DNA of 52,814 bases, taken from the IMG/VR virus record IMGVR_UViG_3300025151_000048, positions 1-52,814 of that record; one strand, 5' to 3'. Made by a program: the position numbers and the translations under genes. The notes under the pieces were generated by a model. It saw nothing but the letters and a program-made list of their open reading frames with translations, did no database searches and was not told the origin of the DNA. Positions 3,201-51,598 of this stretch are shown here, piece after piece. Numbering within the stretch: position 1 is the first letter of the stretch; each line of letters begins with the position of its first letter. The stretch is from a virus.

Positions 3201-6200
3201 CCACACTGGTTGTTCTAATGTGTAGTCTGCGGGCATAAATTGTGTTAGTCTTACTTCGTCTAAAACTTTATCCATTGTTTTAGGAATTAAAGACGTTTGA
3301 TATTTACTAAATAATTTATCAGCCAATGCATCTGCATCAGCATTTTTATTATTTACATAATAATCTATTAAGTTAACTATTACATAATTTGTAGGCATTA
3401 TATGCTCCCATCTATAATCAGAAGCTTTTAACCCTTTTTGTATCGAAGCATATTCTAAATTAGCGGCTCTTTTAATAGGTGATTGCATAGTTTGTTGCAT
3501 AGACATAATAGTCATACCCATGTCCATATTATCAAAAGATCTATCATTTTTAATAATCTTCATCATGTTTTTAACAAAGCCCTGCACTCTTTTTGCTTGC
3601 GCTTTTCTTTCATCAAAATCAAAATCATCCGAAAGTTCACCATTTTTATCAATTACAGAATTAGTTGCTTCTGGTAATAATGTATATTCACTAGGATCAA
3701 TTACTTTGCCATCAATTTTTAATTCAATTAATTGGCCTTTGCCGTCTAGCTTATATTCTATTTCACCCTCATATTCATTTACTATTGTATCAAAGAAATC
3801 CTTATTATTTTCAAATACTTGATAACCTTGTTTAGGTAATTTACCTTTAGGGGCATCAGGATATAATTTTTTCATTTCGGCATCAGTTCTTCTAACTATT
3901 TGCCCTTTTTCTATTTTAAAAGTTCTATTACCTATTCTACCTGATGTAGAAAACATTCCTTTACCTATAGAAAATAAATCTATAATAGCTTGTTTTTTGC
4001 CTTTCTCTGTTCTAAACCTTCTAACAAATCTACCAACTAATCCTCTTTGTTTTTTTATTCTATCAATATCGTCAAACCCTTCAGTTATAGGCTTATCTAA
4101 GTCTAATAGTCTTCTTACAGTCTCAGAGGTTTCAGCATTAACAAATTGGTCTTTAAGGAACTTTCCAAGTACTTTTTTATTAATAATAGGTAGTTTTTTA
4201 ACTACGGGTTTAGCTAAATTAAATAGTTTTGCATAATTATATAAATCGTTTGCAATAGCATTTATTTCTTTTTTCGTTAGAGCATCCCCATATACTTTTG
4301 TTAATTTACTTTTAAAGTATTCTTTCATTTCATTTCTAACCTCTTTCTCGCCTTCTTTATCTAACCCCTTAGGTATATCAACTTTCCCAACATCTAAAAC
4401 AGTTGTAAATTGAGTTAGCCTATCATAAAATATTTCTTTTTTAGCATCTGTTAAATTATTGACACCTTTACTCCAAGCTATATTTCTTGTGCCAAATTGC
4501 ATATCTAAATCATTAACAAATGCTTCGCCCTCATATCCCTCTTTTCTTAATACATCTGTTTGTAATTCAAAAGAAGCAGTTGAAGCCAGCCAATCAGCAT
4601 AAGATAGCACCCTAGCTCCATATACATTGGACGCTTCTCCTTCCGCCTTCATGTATTCTTTAAATTTTTTCCTAGCGTCTTCTTTGTCAATCTTTTTCCA
4701 TTTTCTATTTCTGGAATATATATTTTTAATTTTTTTACCTTGGCTTAACCCTTTATCTATAGCGTCATTATGTGCTCTAGCTTCAGCTACACTCATAAAC
4801 GCAGGTGAACCATCTGTATTTGTTGCTCTTTCTGTTAAAAATGGATATTTAGCATTTGCAGTTCCAATATCCATTCTATCCCACATTGCATCAAAAGTTG
4901 AATCTACAAAATTTTCAACATTGATTCTTTTTTGCTTATTTGATATTTTATCTTTCTTAGGATCTGTATTAAATTTATCACCTCTTTGCATTACATTTCT
5001 AAATAATAAAGAAACTTTTTGTTGATACTCTTTCGATAATTCTGTTCTAAACTCTGGAGTACCTATAGGATTTTTAAATTTACCAAGTTTTGTTTTAAAT
5101 GTTTTTAATATATTATTTTCAATTTCAGTTGTAATTTCAGTGGGAAGTGGGACTAACTTACCATCTGAATCTTTAAATTTTAAAGTATTAAGTAAATCTT
5201 TTTTCTTTTTTCTTTTCTTATTATCTTCCCCTCTTTTTTTATCATCATCAGTTGGGTCTGTATCAGTTATATTTTTTACTTGCGGAGCATTAGGATCTAA
5301 CCTTGCTGGTAATTGATTAAATGTTTGTTTAGCTAAAGTAAACACTCTAAAATATCCTCTATTTCTTACAAATTTATCTAAATCCTGTGTTTTTACAATA
5401 CCATCTTTACCAGGTTTTAAGTATTCTTGCTGAATCATAGTATATAATTCTGTAGCAACATCTCTTTCCCATTCGTCTTTAGTAACATTATTTCTATTCA
5501 TAGGATCAACACCGCTCCAAATATAATTAGCTTGTGATTTAATATAAGGCATCATTTCTTGCATCAATTCCGATTCCATCATATCCTCTACAAGATTCCC
5601 ATCAGAGTCTCTACTTAATTTTTCATTTAAAAAACTATTTAGTTTGTCTCTTTTTTCCTCTTCACTAATTCTACTATATCTTGAGCCGCTAGACCTATTT
5701 TCTTTTATAAATTTATTAAGCAAGCCTTCTAAATTAGTACCTTTTGACGCAGCTAAATCATATACACCCGCAGGGGCATCGGTGTCAATGTCTGAAATAA
5801 GAGTAGTAACCGCTGCACTTTGCTTAGCTTCTTTAATATCTTTCAATGTTAAATCACCTGCTTTAATTTTTTTACCAAGACCAACAACAAAATTATACAT
5901 GTCATTTTCACCTCTAAAATCAAAATTGTAATCAGCATCAAAATGCTTCTGTACCATTGTACCAAATAATAGGGATAATCCTTTATTTTTTTTCTCAGTT
6001 ACAAAATCAACATCTGAACGCCCAACATATTCTAAAAATACAGATATAACTTCTTTGGAGTCAAGTGATCCATCGCTATTATATATACGCCCATCTTTTA
6101 AAAATTCTTTATATAATTTTTTATCAACAGACTTTAAAGTAGTTAAAATTTGCTTTGATATATCTGCGAAAGCAACGTCATGGTCAGTACCAGAAAATAT

Positions 6201-9200
6201 ATCCCAAAATGCTTGATGACCAATTTCATGAGTTTTAATTTCAGACCTTTCATTAATAACTTGATTTTCAACTACAGCTATAGTAACTACATTTTTTATA
6301 GCGACTCCATCATTTTTACCAACTTTTAACCCCTTGATTAAATTATCTTTTAAATTTTTAACCGCATCTTCAATAGTCATAGTTTTACCATCCGGCATTT
6401 TATATTTACCATCTTCCATTAAAGTACCTTGCTCTTCTAATGTAGCTTTAGCAACTGCTGTTAAATCTAATTCATCATTAATATAATTTTCTGCATCTGC
6501 CACAGTATCAAATGATTGGAAATTATATCTATTTTTTACTCCTTTTTTAAGCTTAGCGTTATTTTCTTTAATTTTATCTGTCCAATATAAATCTGATGCT
6601 TCTCTTTCTAGTGCCGAACCTTTTGGGTCTTTACCATCAGCTATTAATTTTTGCTTAGCTTTGTCAATATATTGATTATAAAGCTTAGGATCTTTACCTG
6701 CTAATGCAATAAACTCAGTTCTAAATTGTTGCTTTGCTTTATCGCTTAATGCATTTGTTTTTATTGCATCAAGCTGGTTAAATTGATCTCTTAATAAATT
6801 AATTGCTCTGGCTTTATCTTCTTTAGACATTTCAGAATCAGGAATATTAAGAATTTCATTTGCAGTATTTTGCAATTCCATTTGTGCTTCAGTTATAGAA
6901 ACTATATTAGACGCAGCGCCAGCACCCATATGATTATTAATTAAATCAGTTTGCCTTTCCATTTCAGCATTATACTCTTGGTTTACTTGCTCTAATTCTT
7001 TTATATAAATAGCCCTTGTTCTATCTGAAGATCTACCGTCATTAATTTTTCTACTTAATTCTAATTTTTTATTAAATAATTCCCTTGTTTTCTTTAAAGA
7101 ATTTCTATCAGACATTCTAGACTGATACATTCCTTTTAAAAATGGAACTCCTGCAAATAATAATGTCATAGATGCACCAGAGAACCCTGCATGACCTATA
7201 TTATCTAAGAGGCCTATATTTTTACCCGACATTATTTCAACACCGTTTTGTAAACCCATAGTGGTTGTTTCACCTAATGTTTCTAAAAGTATTTCACTTC
7301 TTAGTGAGGGTAATTGAGAATTAATAAATGCGTTTTGGCCGCCTTCTAATAATTTATCTTGCCCATTGGCAACCCATCTTTGCTGAGCTCTTTTTAATAT
7401 AGGAACTGTTGTATAATGAGAAATTACACCTTCAATTCCACCATATCCAAGCGAGGTTAATAACATGTTAAGTTCAGAATAATCTGCCGTACCCTGCACC
7501 ATTTCTGATTGCATATCTGAATATTTACCACCCGCTGAAGAAGCCCCTATTGTGAGAGCCCCATATCCACCACTCATCATAATAGCAGCAAATATTGGTA
7601 ATTGTGTAGATGTTTCTTGAAGCATAAATCTACCAAATCTACTAGGGCTAGTAAAAGCACCATAATCTCCTGTAAATTCTACGTCTCTAGTATACTGTGC
7701 TCTTTCTCTTTGTGATAATTCATTATACCCTGTAAAAAAGCTTTGTACTCCTTCGCCTAATTTACCCTCAAAAGCTAAATGATCAACAGCCATTCCAGCC
7801 CAACCAAAAGGCGTTAAGTATTCTGTAATTTTATATCCAGTTTGCGCAATACCAAATGCAATATCACCAAACCCAAGCCCAATGTTACCCATATATTTTT
7901 CTCCTAATTGGTAATTCAAAGCAAAAGCTTGTCCTGCAATTTCATCATCAATAATTTCAGCGGCGGCATTATTTGCTTTTTCAGAGTATTCTTCTTGTAA
8001 TTTAAAGCGTGTTAACATATCTTGATATGCTAATGCATATATACCCGCAACATTAGAATTAATAATTTTACCATTTTCCAATACAACATCTTGACCTTCG
8101 CCAAAATCAGGTAAAAATAAACCTTTTTCAGTTGCAAATTGTGTAAACTTTTCTATTTGTTCTTCTGTAAATCTAATATTTTCTGCACCAAGAGGGTTTT
8201 GTATTTGTTCTTCAATTATACGTAAAATTTCTTTGTCTTGTTCAATATAACCAATATTAACATCTTGTTTAGTCATATTTTTATCATACTCTTTAAATTC
8301 ACGTAATTGAGAACTTACCTGACCAAGATAAAAGCGCCCTAATTCTTTGCCCCTATCACCCATTTCTGCAATATGTGTATCAACCCATTTAGCCTGATGT
8401 TCATTTATATGGTCAGTATATAAACGTTGTCTTACAATTTGTTGTGCAACTTTTTCAATAGTAATTTCTTCTTCTTCATCTAGTTTACCGCCATAATTAA
8501 CAAAAACACTTCTTAATTGATTTTCATCTAAATTTTCATTTTTAAGTTTTTCCGAAGTGCTATTTATTAAATCTGAATGAGGATATGTAGTAGTAGTCGT
8601 TCCTTCGTGTATAGTTGCTGTAGGTGAATGTTTTGAAGCAAATGTAACTGTTCGTGGGGATGTTGTGGTAACGGGTTTAAATAAATCTTCATTATTTAAA
8701 TATAATTTTTTGCCTTCCTCTCTAACAGGAGCCATTTCGCTTTCTTGTAAAGATTCATAATATGCGCTTGCTTCCAACCCTAAATGTTCCACTTGCCTCC
8801 ATACATCCCAAGAATCTATATTACCAGCTTCAATTTCTTTCTTTAAAAAATTATGTAATTTTTTATTATTTTCTTCTGCAAGTTTATTAGCCCCCTCTTC
8901 ATCTCTATAATCTAGCCAGTATTTACTTTCGCCATGTAACCCATCTAAATCAAATTCTAATACTATTTCTTCGCCAGATTTTTTACTTTTTATTTTAATT
9001 CTATCCCAGCCGACATCAGTTGCTTCTATTTTTAATCCTGGAATTTCACCTAAAATAGATTTAACCTTTGATAACCCATCATCTTCTTCACTGGTATATA
9101 ACTCGAATCCTTTGCCTTTAACTAGTTTAGTCTTACCCTCTTTATCCTGTTTTGTTGTAACACCTCTTGCTTGGTCAGTAAGAATTTCAGCAAGTTCATC

Positions 9201-43879: not shown

Positions 43880-44133
43880 TCTACCAATACTACATCTCCT
43901 AAATTTATAACTGTGTATAATTTATCTTTATAGGAAATACCATGACCAGCATGTTTGTCGTAAAAGATAATATCGTCTTTACTAACTCCCAGTACTTTGT
44001 CACCCACGCTAATAACTTTAGCTTTTTTGTACCTAACCTCAGTATCTTTAGCTTCTGCTATAACGAGGCCGCCAACTTCTCTTGGCTCCTCTTTTATCTT
44101 TTCTATTATTATATAGTAGTTTATTGCCTTCAT
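43876..44133 (-). CDS. groES: GroES-like co-chaperonin
   Basis: 85 residues from the ATG at 44133, which overlaps the groEL stop as ATGA. An upstream in-frame ATG at 44160 adds nine unlikely residues. It contains EKIKEEPREVGGLVIAEAK (mobile-loop region), KVISVGDKVLGVSKDD and IIFYDKHAGHGISYKDKLYTVINLGDVVLVE, the GroES barrel pattern. It would cap the phage GroEL ring. Encoding both partners, in the order groEL-groES and translationally coupled, suggests the phage needs a chaperonin tailored to its own virion proteins. Confidence 0.85.
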   Translation of the reverse strand: MKAINYYIIIEKIKEEPREVGGLVIAEAKDTEVRYKKAKVISVGDKVLGVSKDDIIFYDKHAGHGISYKDKLYTVINLGDVVLVE

Positions 44134-45695
44134 TCTTCTCTTACATTTGAAATTACACAATCTGCAGAGATAATTGTTTTTGCAACAGATACCGCATTTT
44201 TCAATGCTGACTTGGTAACTAATAGCGGATCGATAATACCTGCTTTAATCATATTCTTAGTACAACCACAAGTTACATCAATTCCTGTTCCCTCTTCATA
44301 AGTATGTTTTGCTCTTTCAGCCATATTAGCATTTTCTAATACTTTTATAAATGGGGCTTGAATTGCATTTATTAATATAGTCTCTCCTCCTCCTTTATGG
44401 AATTCTATCCTTTCAGCAGCATTTAATAGTGCAACACCACCGCCTGGGACTATACCTTCTTCAATTGCAGCTTTTGTCGCATATAAAGCATCTTCTACTC
44501 TATCTTTTTTCTCTTTTAACTCAACTTTTGAGTATGCACCTACTTTTATAATACCAACTAAGCCAGAAAGCATAGCCAATCTTTTTTGATGTAGGCCTTT
44601 CCAAAATTTATCTTTGGTTTCCTTGATCTTTTTTTCTACTACTTTGATCCTTTCTTCAAAAAGCTTAGGATCTTTGTCTACAGTAAGCACAGTAGATTTT
44701 TTATCTGTTACAGATTTTTTAGCTCTACCTAAAACATCAGGGCTAATCATGTCCATATCGTCGCCAAGTTCCTCATCGATAATTTTTGCACCCGTTAATA
44801 GTGATAAATCTTCTAAAGTATCTCTTTTTGATGGGCCAAATCCTGGAACATCTATAACATTTACCTTAATATTGCCTTTTACCTTGTTCATTAGCAAAGT
44901 TGCAAAAGGTTGTTGCTCTAATTCTGCAATTATAAGCAGTGATTCTTTAGATTTTACTATAAATTCCAAAATACTTTGTATTTTACGTACATTTTGGATG
45001 GGAGAATTTACAATTAATATATATGGATTGTCTAAAATTGCTTTATGCTTGTCTTTATCAGTAATTAAATGGGGAGATTTTAATTTACAGTCAGAAAGCT
45101 CAACACCATCTACAATTTCGATGTGATCTTGCTCAGTTTCTGAGGTTTCCATTAAAACTACGCCATTTTTACCTACTTTTCCGTAAGCTTCTGCAATTAA
45201 ATCGCCCAATTTTTCGTCATTATTACAAGAAATTCTTGCAACATGCTTAATCATCTTCTCATCTGCGGGTTTTTTAATTTTTTCTAGGTATTCTAGTACC
45301 TTTTCTAAAGAAAAATCTATGCCTTTTTTGATATGTCTAATATCTTCGAAGCCATCATACTCTTCATATTCTTTTAAAATGGAGTGAGCAAGGATAGTAG
45401 CCGTAGTGGTACCATCCCCTGCTTCTTCCACTGTATTACTAGCAGCTTCTTTTATTAAAGTAGCTCCTATATGTTCGACCGGGTCTCTTAAGACTACGCT
45501 TTCCGCAACGGTTACTCCGTCTTTTGTAATTACCGGCCGACCCATGGTGTCTTCATAAACAACACATCTTCCCGATGCTCCTAATGTTGAGCCAACTGCT
45601 TTGGCTAACTTAGTAACACCGTTCATGATTTTTTTCCTAGCCTTTTTATTAAAGCTAAGATCTTTAACTATATTGTTAGGGTTATTATAATTCAT
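44130..45695 (-). CDS. groEL: GroEL-like chaperonin
   Basis: 521 residues, close to bacterial GroEL (about 545). ATP-site motifs are T-K-D-G-V-T-V-A at 57-64, G-D-G-T-T-T-A-T at 93-100 and, near the C-terminus, V-E-D-A-L-Y-A-T-K-A-A-I-E-E-G-I-V-P-G-G-G. The apical domain is diverged (FGPSKRDTLEDLSLLTGA is recognisable). The Gly-Gly-Met tail of cellular GroEL is missing; the protein ends VISNVREE. It is therefore a phage chaperonin, not a transferred recent host copy. It probably folds capsid or fibre proteins with the phage or host GroES. Confidence 0.95.
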   Translation of the reverse strand: MNYNNPNNIVKDLSFNKKARKKIMNGVTKLAKAVGSTLGASGRCVVYEDTMGRPVITKDGVTVAESVVLRDPVEHIGATLIKEAASNTVEEAGDGTTTATILAHSILKEYEEYDGFEDIRHIKKGIDFSLEKVLEYLEKIKKPADEKMIKHVARISCNNDEKLGDLIAEAYGKVGKNGVVLMETSETEQDHIEIVDGVELSDCKLKSPHLITDKDKHKAILDNPYILIVNSPIQNVRKIQSILEFIVKSKESLLIIAELEQQPFATLLMNKVKGNIKVNVIDVPGFGPSKRDTLEDLSLLTGAKIIDEELGDDMDMISPDVLGRAKKSVTDKKSTVLTVDKDPKLFEERIKVVEKKIKETKDKFWKGLHQKRLAMLSGLVGIIKVGAYSKVELKEKKDRVEDALYATKAAIEEGIVPGGGVALLNAAERIEFHKGGGETILINAIQAPFIKVLENANMAERAKHTYEEGTGIDVTCGCTKNMIKAGIIDPLLVTKSALKNAVSVAKTIISADCVISNVREE

Positions 45696-48750: not shown

Positions 48751-48939
48751 ATGAGATGTAAATGTAAAAATATAATTCCACAAGGTAGATTGCGATTAGG
48801 TTATAAAACTTGTGTAAATTGTTCAACAGTAGAAATGCATAGTTATATACCTATAATAGCAAATAAACAAATACAAGAATTGCAAATAGTTTCGCCATCA
48901 CTATCTGCGTTAGTACATAAATCATGGCGTAGAAAATAG
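48751..48939 (+). CDS. DksA/TraR-type zinc-ribbon protein
   Basis: 62 residues: M-R-C-K-C-K-N-I-I-P-Q-G-R-L-R-L-G-Y-K-T-C-V-N-C-S. C3, C5, C21 and C24 with I-P-x-x-R-L-x-x-G between them resemble the zinc-ribbon end of DksA/TraR proteins, which bind RNA polymerase through the secondary channel. The long coiled coil of DksA is missing, so this would be a minimal zinc-ribbon version. A role in redirecting host transcription is inferred. Confidence 0.6.
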   Translation: MRCKCKNIIPQGRLRLGYKTCVNCSTVEMHSYIPIIANKQIQELQIVSPSLSALVHKSWRRK

Positions 48940-49247: not shown

Positions 49248-49453
49248 TAAAAGTAATACAATATGTCTTAGTAGGTGGAATATGTTTTATATTAGGTATA
49301 TTTTATACATTTTATAAAATTGACCAAAGAGTATGGGACGAAACCATTAATAAAGCATGGGACATAGAAAATAGAGCAATGAATTTTCCAGAGAAATCTT
49401 GTTATAATTGGCAAGATATTGAACTAATAATCTTTGGTGAAATACAAGAATAA
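49232..49453 (+). CDS. Small membrane-anchored protein
   Basis: 73 residues: a basic start (MGNKVIKVI), a clear transmembrane segment (QYVLVGGICFILGIFYTFY, about 10-28), then an acidic soluble tail with IDQRVWDETINKAWDIENRAM. It probably faces the cytoplasm or periplasm as a single-pass protein. Its stop codon's last base is also the first base of the tRNA-like RNA's acceptor stem at 49453. Confidence 0.7.
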   Translation: MGNKVIKVIQYVLVGGICFILGIFYTFYKIDQRVWDETINKAWDIENRAMNFPEKSCYNWQDIELIIFGEIQE

Positions 49454-49721
49454 GCTAGACGAGTAGGTTAATAGGTATGATTAAAGGCGTAATCCTGACG
49501 AAGGTGAGAAAAACGGCTCGATGATTACACATAACTGAATTGCTAGCACTTGACCGGAAGCGCAATAGCGACTCGAGGTTGGATAACTAGGTATGGCGTG
49601 GAGAAGGCATAAAGAGTATAAGTCTAGGTAGCGTGCACGCAAGTGCAAACGGGAGCATCTCAGCTGATTATCCCACTAACTACTGACGAGTAAAGAGGTT
49701 CGATTCCTCTTCTAGTTGCTA
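49453..49721 (+). ncRNA. tRNA-like RNA with large structured insert
   Basis: Acceptor AGCTAGA (49453-49459) pairs with TCTAGTT (49711-49717; one G-U). The T-arm is AGAGG-TTCGATT-CCTCT (49694-49710). Discriminator G and CTA follow. A second stem, AGTAGGTTA (49462-49470) with TAACTACT (49678-49685) and one bulged base, closes a ~207-base insert. The insert shows group I intron-like elements: GACTCGA (from 49570) as a possible R element, AAAGAGTATAAGTCT (49611-49625) as S, a TATG...CATA hairpin, and a TGCAC-GCAA-GTGCA hairpin (49634-49647) like P9. An intron-containing tRNA or a tmRNA-like RNA are alternatives. No D-arm is visible. Confidence 0.55.
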
Positions 49722-50459: not shown

Positions 50460-50912
50460 ATGAGTAAAAAATTATTAACAGAAGACCTTATTCTCAAAAA
50501 ATTATTTGATAAAGGCATTAGAGAGCCGGGAACTTTCGAAATTGATGATGTATTAGATGACTTATTAAGTCATTATGGTGCAGAAATAAGAGATGACTGG
50601 GGCGGTTCATTTAATATATGGTTTTATACTGAATCAACTACTGATGGGTATGAAGTATATGTTGCAACAGAAAATGAAACTAGCCCATATATTGGCGAAG
50701 ATGTATATTATTATGAAAATGATTGGCTTGAAAAATTACCTAATGCAATTATTGATGGTTTATCTATCCATTTAGATAATTATCATAGAGATGATTATGC
50801 ATTTGAAGATGCAATAAATGAGGTATATGATATATATTGGAATGATATGAAAGAAGATGTTGAATCTGAGTTAATCGAAGAAGGTTATAGTTGGCCATCT
50901 AAAGATGAATAA
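50460..50912 (+). CDS. Acidic early protein, unknown
   Basis: 150 residues, strongly acidic: MSKKLLTEDLILKKLFDKGIREPGTFEIDDVLDDLLSHYGAEIRDD, ATENETSPYIGEDVYYYENDWLEKLPNAIIDGLSIHLDNYHRDDYAFEDAINEVYDIYWNDMKEDVE. DNA-mimic acidic proteins are common among early phage genes, but nothing beyond charge supports that here. It ends 5 bases before the third tRNA-like RNA. Confidence 0.65.
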   Translation: MSKKLLTEDLILKKLFDKGIREPGTFEIDDVLDDLLSHYGAEIRDDWGGSFNIWFYTESTTDGYEVYVATENETSPYIGEDVYYYENDWLEKLPNAIIDGLSIHLDNYHRDDYAFEDAINEVYDIYWNDMKEDVESELIEEGYSWPSKDE

Positions 50913-50917
50913 ACAAA

Positions 50918-51003
50918 GGGCGTGAAATGGTTAGACATTGGCAATTACTTTTAATCGAAGGAAAAGCAATGTAACGCAGGTTCGATTCCTGCCACGTCCA
51001 CTA
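50918..51003 (+). ncRNA. tRNA-like RNA with extended hairpin
   Basis: Acceptor GGGCGTG (50918-50924) pairs with CACGTCC (50993-50999; one G-U), and the T-arm is GCAGG-TTCGATT-CCTGC (50976-50992). Between them a hairpin has ACATTG/CAATGT (50935-50940, 50967-50972) and CTTTT/AAAAG (50948-50952, 50962-50966) stems and loop AATCGAAGG. No D-arm is visible and no standard anticodon stem-loop is formed. Discriminator A and CTA follow. Confidence 0.55.
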
Positions 51004-51425
51004 AATGGAGTGTAAGTCGTTCCCGAAAACCGGCCCACCGGAAATCGGGGCATCTCCAAAGAGTAGTAATCGATTTAAAACTAATGCGCTACTCAGGGTT
51101 GGTGACTCCCAAGACAAATCACATTAGGGACTAAGTGCCGATATGTGAATCACCTGTAATAAGAAGAGACTGCTGGGGTTTCTTCCCCCTAAAATATAAT
51201 GGGTTAAAACACGAAGGACGGAATAATATAGTGGCTACTAAGCGGATACGCACAAAACCACAAATTTCTCAACTTGGTAAACGTGAGTCAGGTCAATGAG
51301 TTAGATATTAGACCTCAGAAAGCGTGGGTACGTGCACAGTGCCACCCAAAAATACTATAGGTGTGGGCACGCGTGCGGTGCTGTTACTTGACCTGAGAAA
51401 AGACGTACAAGCACACCTAAAATAT
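51004..51425 (+). ncRNA. Structured non-coding RNA region
   Basis: About 420 bases without a reading frame of note, GC-richer than the flanks. Supported stems include a symmetric hairpin CCCGA-AAA-CCGG-CCCA-CCGG-AAA-TCGGG (51022-51049) closed by TGGAG/CTCCA (51006-51010, 51054-51058); GAGTAG/CTACTC (51061-51066, 51089-51094); a perfect 9-bp helix TCAGGTCAA/TTGACCTGA (51288-51296, 51388-51396); and AGGTGTG/CACACCT (51359-51365, 51412-51418), which crosses the previous helix to form a pseudoknot. Two related GTGGG-x-ACG...GTGC segments (51324-51342 and 51363-51381) repeat. It could be a single ornate phage RNA of the kind found beside phage tRNAs (GOLLD, ROOL); family not shown. Confidence 0.5.
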
Positions 51426-51499
51426 GGCGGGATGGAGCAGATGGTCAGCTCGCGAGCCTCATAAGCTCGAGGTCGTAGGTTCGAATCCTACTCCCGCAC
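51426..51499 (+). tRNA. tRNA-Met (CAT anticodon)
   Basis: A full cloverleaf: acceptor GGCGGGA with TCCCGCA, D-arm GAGC-AGATGGTCA-GCTC, anticodon arm CGAGC-CTCATAA-GCTCG (anticodon CAT), T-arm GTAGG-TTCGAAT-CCTAC. The first pair is G1:A72, a mismatch like that of initiator tRNAs, but the three G-C pairs typical of initiator anticodon stems are missing. Discriminator C is followed by CTAA, not CCA, as in the three tRNA-like RNAs. It could also be a CAT-anticodon Ile tRNA if position 34 is modified. Confidence 0.85.
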
Positions 51500-51512
51500 C
51501 TAAATTAAAATT

Positions 51513-51596
51513 ATGACAACAACTGAAGAAGCACTATTAGTATTAGGTATATTCTTAGCAATATGTTTATTACTAGTGTCTTTAATTAAAGATTAA
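51513..51596 (+). CDS. Tiny membrane peptide
   Basis: 27 codons: MTTTEEALLVLGIFLAICLL followed by LVSLIKD. A single transmembrane stretch covers most of it. It starts 13 bases after the tRNA, with an A-rich leader (AATTAAAATT). Function unknown. Confidence 0.5.
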   Translation: MTTTEEALLVLGIFLAICLLLVSLIKD

Positions 51597-51598
51597 AT

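What the first reader, a model, noticed from the sequence alone, without database searches (positions are those of the whole stretch)
51004..51425. Highly structured non-coding RNA with a predicted pseudoknot beside the tRNA
About 420 bases without genes in a genome that otherwise wastes almost nothing. It is GC-richer and contains several perfect stems, including a symmetric hairpin with facing AAA loops, a 9-bp long-range helix (51288/51388) and a 7-bp helix (51359/51412) crossing it. Large ornate RNAs (GOLLD, ROOL) are known next to phage tRNAs; this may be one or a new class.
Basis: partly seen in the sequence, partly recalled or inferred. Interest (0 to 1): 0.75.

Follow-up and report, generated by a model that had tools for sequence, protein, structure and literature searches.

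The report
Phage array of swappable RNA modules
The stretch is not one giant RNA but part of a string of small folded RNAs in a group of marine viruses of Bacteroidota-type bacteria, several of them built as a constant (in one case tRNA/tmRNA-like) frame that carries a different, exchangeable RNA piece in almost every virus; what they do is unknown.

Summary
It is part of a multi-RNA array (50918-51500, with a second cluster at 49453-49718). Elements A-D (51006-51185) have no relatives found. Element E (51200-51348) and element F (51359-51418, a three-way junction) recur in other phages in other orders and contexts. F is strongly supported by covariation (16/16 pairs kept in 12 copies, 13 with two-sided changes). 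The missed centrepiece is a tRNA-like element at 50918-51000 (TLE-I), closest to the tRNA-like domain of tmRNA but below Rfam's cut-off. It occurs in about 70 contigs of one phage clade. Its frame is near-constant; its anticodon-arm position holds 62 distinct inserts, closed by a helix that covaries. Ten of 11 insert modules recur in two or more contexts, and inserts differ completely between near-identical flanks. No match to GOLLD, ROOL or any Rfam family. Best reading: a natural tRNA-scaffold display of exchangeable RNA modules, possibly decoys in phage-host conflict. The architecture is well supported; the function is inferred.

The parts
49453..49548 (+). Frame III element AGCTAGACGAGTAGGTTAATAGG-[insert M2 GATTAAAGGCG..CGGCTCGATGA]-ACATAACTGAATTGCTAGCA
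   Evidence: Constant ends with different inserts in many related loci; 18 inserts, closing pairs 4.78 of 5 against 3.78 shuffled, maximum 4.22; fold z -3.02
49584..49718 (+). TLE-II: second tRNA-like frame AACTAGGTATGG..GACTACTGACGAGTAAAGAGGTTCGATTCCTCTTCTAGTT, with acceptor and T arm and a variable insert
   Evidence: 10 distinct frame sequences
50918..51000 (+). TLE-I: tmRNA/tRNA-like frame (acceptor 50918-50924/50993-50999, T arm 50976-50992, A73 at 51000, G3:U70) with cassette insert 50935-50972
   Evidence: 66 stretches by pattern; 71 distinct sequences; H2 covariation; tmRNA 42 bits, tRNA 26 bits
51006..51058 (+). Element A: TGGAG..CTCCA hairpin with facing AAA internal loop
   Evidence: Energy only (z -2.41); no relative
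51061..51094 (+). Element B: GAGTAG..CTACTC hairpin
   Evidence: Energy only (z -1.76); no relative
51101..51154 (+). Element C: GGTGA..TCACC hairpin
   Evidence: Weak: fold no better than shuffles (z -0.22); only a 12-base string ATCACCTGTAAT shared with other loci
51163..51185 (+). Element D: small hairpin
   Evidence: Weak (z -1.14); no relative
51200..51348 (+). Element E: frame TGGGTTAAAACACGAAGGACGG..CAGAAAGCGTGG..CCACCCA with a variable interior
   Evidence: 10 distinct copies, 62 to 199 nt; 3' hairpin covaries, 3/3 pairs
51359..51418 (+).
   Evidence: 12 distinct copies, 16/16 pairs kept, 13 with two-sided changes, score 0.671 against 0.338, 0/500; same core inside TLE-I of L048, L052, L073, L085
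51426..51500 (+). tRNA-Met (CAT) at the end of the array

Best explanation
The region is an array of small structured RNAs carried by a clade of marine podovirus-like phages of Bacteroidota-type hosts. Shown here: discrete elements, several built as a conserved frame around an exchangeable, often nested, RNA module; TLE-I is a frame that resembles the tRNA-like domain of tmRNA, with the anticodon-arm position (H2 of tmRNA) used as the cassette site. Inferred: the array is transcribed with tRNA-Met and cut into separate RNAs by host tRNA-processing enzymes (RNase P, RNase Z, CCA addition; the DNA encodes no CCA). TLE-I may be recognised by host AlaRS through G3:U70 and A73. The frame makes the RNA stable and displays the module, as engineered tRNA scaffolds do. 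Modules are swapped between phages by recombination in the constant frame sequences. Most likely role (the weakest step, about 0.25 on its own): decoys or inhibitors of host RNA-handling proteins (tRNA- or tmRNA-binding factors, or RNA-targeting defences), whose diversification would explain the turnover of inserts.
For: Elements recur independently and in other orders. Covariation of the insert-closing helix in TLE-I, of F, of E's hairpin and of frame III inserts. Ten of 11 modules occur in two or more contexts. Unrelated inserts between near-identical flanks: L002/L072, L031/L033, L009/L047. TLE-I scores 42 bits with tmRNA against 26 with tRNA and shares motifs with the tmRNA of a Bacteroidetes MAG. 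Restricted to one phage clade. tRNA scaffold precedent in the laboratory: PMC3753655.
Against: No transcript, processing or charging data. TLE-I stays below the cut-off of both the tmRNA and the tRNA model. Invariance of the TLE-I 3' end is partly built in by the search pattern. Elements A-D have no relatives, so their folds rest on energy. Nothing tested here shows a target or a fitness effect; the decoy role is a guess.
Confidence: 0.5

Rival explanations
1. Selfish hairpin elements: small mobile hairpins insert into loops of phage RNA genes where they do no harm, so the variability reflects turnover of the elements and not a function for the phage.
For: Same modules in different contexts and nested in each other; a 52-nt hairpin set precisely into a site that is empty in the window's E.
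Against: Closing helices are kept by compensatory changes while cores stay the same, which suggests selection on the RNA fold. Modules were seen only in RNA arrays, but other sites were not surveyed systematically.
Confidence: 0.25
2. Cis-acting or regulatory RNAs: the elements are leaders, riboswitches or small regulatory RNAs that control neighbouring phage genes, and the tRNA-like ends only stabilise the transcript.
For: All elements lie on the strand of the downstream genes; arrays sit directly before short genes.
Against: Inserts change completely while the downstream genes stay the same; several elements are followed by further RNAs, not genes; no Rfam riboswitch match.
Confidence: 0.1
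3. A working phage tmRNA variant that acts in ribosome rescue.
For: tmRNA-like acceptor, D region and T arm with G3:U70 and A73; phages with true tmRNA are known (PMC9004378).
Against: ARAGORN finds no tmRNA or tag; inserts of this size and diversity leave no conserved tag frame; score below the gathering cut-off.
Confidence: 0.07
4. Decaying tRNA or tmRNA genes: remnants without function.
For: No anticodon arm in TLE-I; high turnover of inserts.
Against: Helices kept by compensatory changes; one or two TLE-I in nearly every genome of the clade tested.
Confidence: 0.05
5. One large ornate RNA of the GOLLD/ROOL kind across 51004-51425.
For: Length, place beside a tRNA, many stems; GOLLD and ROOL often lie near phage tRNAs (PMC12286853).
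Against: No Rfam match; parts recur separately and in other orders; the 9-bp helix is chance-level.
Confidence: 0.03

Closest known systems
tmRNA, tRNA-like domain (Rfam RF00023)
   Same: 7-bp acceptor with G3:U70 and A73, stemless D region TGGTT..GAC, ACGC-RGG-TTCGATT-CCYGC T arm, helix H2 instead of an anticodon arm
   Different: No tag reading frame, no pseudoknots; H2 opens into a 22-109 nt hypervariable module; below the model's cut-off
Engineered tRNA scaffold for RNA expression (PMC3753655)
   Same: Foreign structured RNA put in place of the anticodon stem-loop of a tRNA frame
   Different: Natural, tmRNA-like, and with a different insert in almost every phage; processing not shown
GOLLD and ROOL large RNAs (PMC12286853)
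   Same: Phage non-coding RNA beside tRNA genes; function unknown
   Different: String of short elements of about 50-200 nt; no sequence or model match
Stable RNAs of unknown function in T4-type tRNA clusters (from memory, not tested)
   Same: Extra non-tRNA RNAs within a phage tRNA operon
   Different: No frame-and-module construction known to me; no comparison made here
Mobile double-hairpin elements of organelle genomes (from memory, not tested)
   Same: Hairpin units inserted in loops of RNA genes
   Different: Here modules carry conserved internal cores and their closing helices covary

Membership tests
GOLLD / ROOL | Match to the Rfam covariance model | tested here: not met
   Only tRNA at the gathering score in the window; no GOLLD or ROOL at E<=10 in 50850-51560
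GOLLD / ROOL | Single RNA of several hundred nt with conserved pseudoknots | tested here: not met
   Stretch resolves into separate elements; long-range helix not conserved
tmRNA (for TLE-I) | Score above the RF00023 gathering cut-off | tested here: not met
   42 bits, cut-off 47
tmRNA (for TLE-I) | Tag reading frame and pseudoknots | tested here: not met
   ARAGORN: no tmRNA; inserts share no frame
tmRNA (for TLE-I) | tRNA-like domain with G3:U70, A73, stemless D region and H2 | tested here: met
   G:U at pair 3 in 39 of 40 rows, partly fixed by the search pattern
tmRNA (for TLE-I) | Alanylation and SmpB binding | not testable with these tools
   Phages carry no SmpB of their own; host SmpB would be needed
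tRNA (for TLE-I) | Score above the RF00005 cut-off, anticodon arm and D stem | tested here: not met
   26 bits, cut-off 29; not called by ARAGORN
Diversity-generating retroelement | Reverse transcriptase in the genome | tested here: not met
   PF00078 absent from 12 phage records, some of them fragments

The most novel reading that the evidence does not exclude
A phage clade runs a natural RNA cassette-display system: constant tRNA/tmRNA-like and other frames, matured by host tRNA enzymes, present a rapidly exchanged repertoire of structured RNA modules that act on host RNA-handling or defence proteins.
Probability: 0.3. Interest if true: 0.92.

Novelty: categorically new. Interest (0 to 1): 0.8.

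Why it matters
Hypervariable loci in phages are known for proteins (tail fibres, diversity-generating retroelements). A locus in which folded RNA modules are swapped and nested inside constant RNA frames, with the closing helices kept by covariation, would be an RNA counterpart. It offers a natural library of modules to test for binding to tRNA enzymes, the ribosome rescue machinery or anti-phage nucleases, and bears on the old question of what extra RNAs in phage tRNA clusters do.

Tried and rejected
GOLLD/ROOL and all Rfam families (only tRNAs above cut-off). Protein relatives of two flanking genes in viral contigs: none found. Blastn of the stretch against phage records: no match outside the tRNA. 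A degenerate pattern for the F core in viral contigs found nothing (the pattern was too strict). Phage relatives MW202828 and elemo: no TLE-I, though elemo has tRNA-Met beside a gap. Protein coding: relatives of E and F differ by 52 and 4 nt, not multiples of three. Diversity-generating retroelement: no reverse transcriptase. SmpB in phages: none. Papers on similar arrays: none found in the open-access library. Integron attC sites, group I introns and RNase P RNA were considered by eye; the last two also give no Rfam match.

Full report
What was claimed and what is there. The gap is real and no convincing gene lies in it. The gap 50913-51598 has 43% GC against about 30% in neighbouring genes. 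The whole stretch folds only a little better than shuffles (z -1.83). Helices of 7 bp or more are as frequent as in shuffles (3 against 3.35), and a 9-bp helix occurs in 17% of 60 shuffles. The 51359/51412 helix, however, is real (element F below).

The missed element. Directly upstream, at 50918-51000, lies a tRNA-like element (TLE-I): 7-bp acceptor GGGCGTG/CACGTCC, T arm GCAGG-TTCGATT-CCTGC, a D region without stem (AAATGGTTAG) and an insert at the anticodon-arm position. ARAGORN does not call it. An exact 21-base pattern from its 3' end hit 66 stretches in IMG/VR. In all of them a matching 5' end is found and the frame is nearly the same, but the insert differs: 71 distinct sequences in 79 copies.

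Covariation in TLE-I. The insert starts after AG and ends before AAC. In fixed register its first six positions pair 4.60 times on average, against 2.60 when 3' sides are shuffled among the 62 distinct inserts (maximum of 2000 shuffles 3.08). Pair 3 forms in 59 of 62, by six pair types. Some inserts are relatives of each other, so these counts are not independent events. On the trimmed 40-row alignment the structure gives 94.9% paired cells and a covariation score of 0.298 against 0.083 (0/500). The T arm and acceptor are nearly invariant, in part because the search fixed those bases; variants found otherwise keep the pairs (L081 GGGTGTG/CACATCC, L060 GGGAGTG/CACTTCC, L089 GCGGG/CCCGC).

Relation to tmRNA. 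TLE-I scores 42 bits with the tmRNA model (cut-off 47) and 26 bits with the tRNA model (cut-off 29). TLE-I of other phages of the clade scores 33-38 with tmRNA; other hits in the MAG of L073, apart from its tmRNA and TLE-I, reach at most 27. The tmRNA of that Bacteroidetes MAG begins GGGGTCGACTGGTTTTGAC and ends GGACGCGGGTTCGATTCCCGCCGACTCCACTT. TLE-I shares G3:U70, A73, the TGGTT..GAC motif and the ACGC-RGG-TTCGATT-CCYGC block. It has no tag frame, and the nine phage records tested lack SmpB. So it resembles the tRNA-like domain of tmRNA but is not filed as a tmRNA.

The rest of the array. E (51200-51348) has a frame TGGGTTAAAACACGAAGGACGG..CAGAAAGCGTGG..CCACCCA whose interior runs from nearly nothing (62-63 nt in L074, L075) to 199 nt (L029, L076), including a 52-nt hairpin set precisely into a site that is empty in the window. 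Its 3' hairpin covaries (3/3 pairs). F (51359-51418) is a three-way junction: in 12 distinct copies all 16 pairs are kept, 13 with two-sided changes, score 0.671 against 0.338 (0/500). F stands alone in the window, L023, L029, L031, L033, L035, L041, L056 and L076, but the same core fills the insert site of TLE-I in L048, L052, L073 and L085. Elements A-D (51006-51185) have no relatives; their folds rest on energy alone, and C and D are weak. L076 shows a neighbouring case: about ten elements in a row, ending in E and tRNA-Met, with F before E instead of after it. A second cluster in the window holds frame III (49453-49548) and TLE-II (49584-49718).

Modularity. Of 11 modules defined by sequence, 10 occur in two or more different contexts (the modules were picked by eye from the loci, so this is a description and not a blind test). 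Modules are also nested: L066 has one module inside another, and L028 has a long module where L017 has a GCGAAAGC loop. Phages with near-identical flanks carry unrelated inserts: L002/L072 (upstream 98.9% over 285 nt), L031/L033 (upstream 97% over 680), L009/L047 (downstream 95% over 1200). Conversely, the same insert occurs in L003, L013, L045, L047, L050, L051 and L071. This looks like exchange of whole cassettes. No reverse transcriptase was found in 12 records, so a diversity-generating retroelement is unlikely.

Who carries it. In two searches 81 records were tested for the window's terminase: 31 of 31 (which include the window and two reference phages without TLE-I) and 41 of 50 have it; those without are mostly short contigs. 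In the IMG/VR records identities are about 70% or more. Most genomes have one TLE-I found by the model, a few two; the model misses some with long inserts. Terminase relatives with known hosts infect Flavobacterium, Cellulophaga, Tenacibaculum and Maribacter. Among bacterial genomes the pattern occurs in three contigs of two MAGs, likely phage contigs.

The 9-bp helix would join E (51288-51296) to a loop of F (51388-51396). Ten of 12 F copies lack the complement. L076, whose F loop is of the window's type, keeps six or seven of the pairs although F lies before E there. A loop-loop contact in these two phages is possible but rests on two cases.

Mechanism. Shown: separate covarying elements, frame-plus-module construction, cassette replacement, restriction to one phage clade in the collections searched. 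Inferred: processing by tRNA enzymes (tRNA-like ends, tRNA-Met in the array, no encoded CCA), alanylation (G3:U70, A73), and stability through the frame, by analogy with the engineered tRNA scaffold (PMC3753655). The role is a guess: turnover of inserts fits diversifying selection, for example decoys for host RNA-handling or RNA-targeting defence proteins (phage tRNAs have been proposed to counter tRNA-cutting defences; PMC10264068). The main rival is that the inserts are selfish hairpins; compensatory changes in closing helices argue for selection on RNA structure but do not exclude it.

Novelty. No Rfam family matches, and open-access literature searches found no description. Subscription papers could not be searched, so an earlier description cannot be excluded.

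Noticed in passing
48751-48939 (+), and upstream of arrays in L005, L031, L035, L071, L073: A small cysteine-rich (zinc-ribbon-like) gene, MRCKCKNIIPQGRLRLGYKTCVNCSTVEMHSYIPI.., has relatives directly upstream of the RNA arrays in several phages; no Pfam match.
   Followed up: partly
44130-45695 (-): Phage-encoded GroEL-type chaperonin (phrog_5725, E 1e-130), as in relatives.
   Followed up: no
about 47200: Gene direction and GC skew switch sign here: late genes on the minus strand before, small genes and RNA arrays on the plus strand after.
   Followed up: no
L076:4154-4278 and the related element of L029: Another element with a conserved core (GCATACAGGTCACGTTAGGCG..) and entirely different closing stems, GAGACAGTG/CACTGTCTC against GAGGTGGTG/CACCACCTC.
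   Followed up: no
L029, about 8718-8770 (-): A minimal tRNA-like element of about 50 nt (AGAGCAT..GCGGGTTCGAATCCCGC..ATGCTCT) without D or anticodon arm.
   Followed up: no
L070:20240-20640 (elemo phage MT497078): The distant relative elemo has tRNA-Met followed by a possible structured element (GGCAGAAT..ATTCTGTCT) in a 300-nt gap, without visible sequence similarity.
   Followed up: no
51288-51296 and 51388-51396; L076:4630-4640 and 4797-4810: Possible loop-loop contact between E and F, kept in part in L076 although the order of E and F is reversed.
   Followed up: partly
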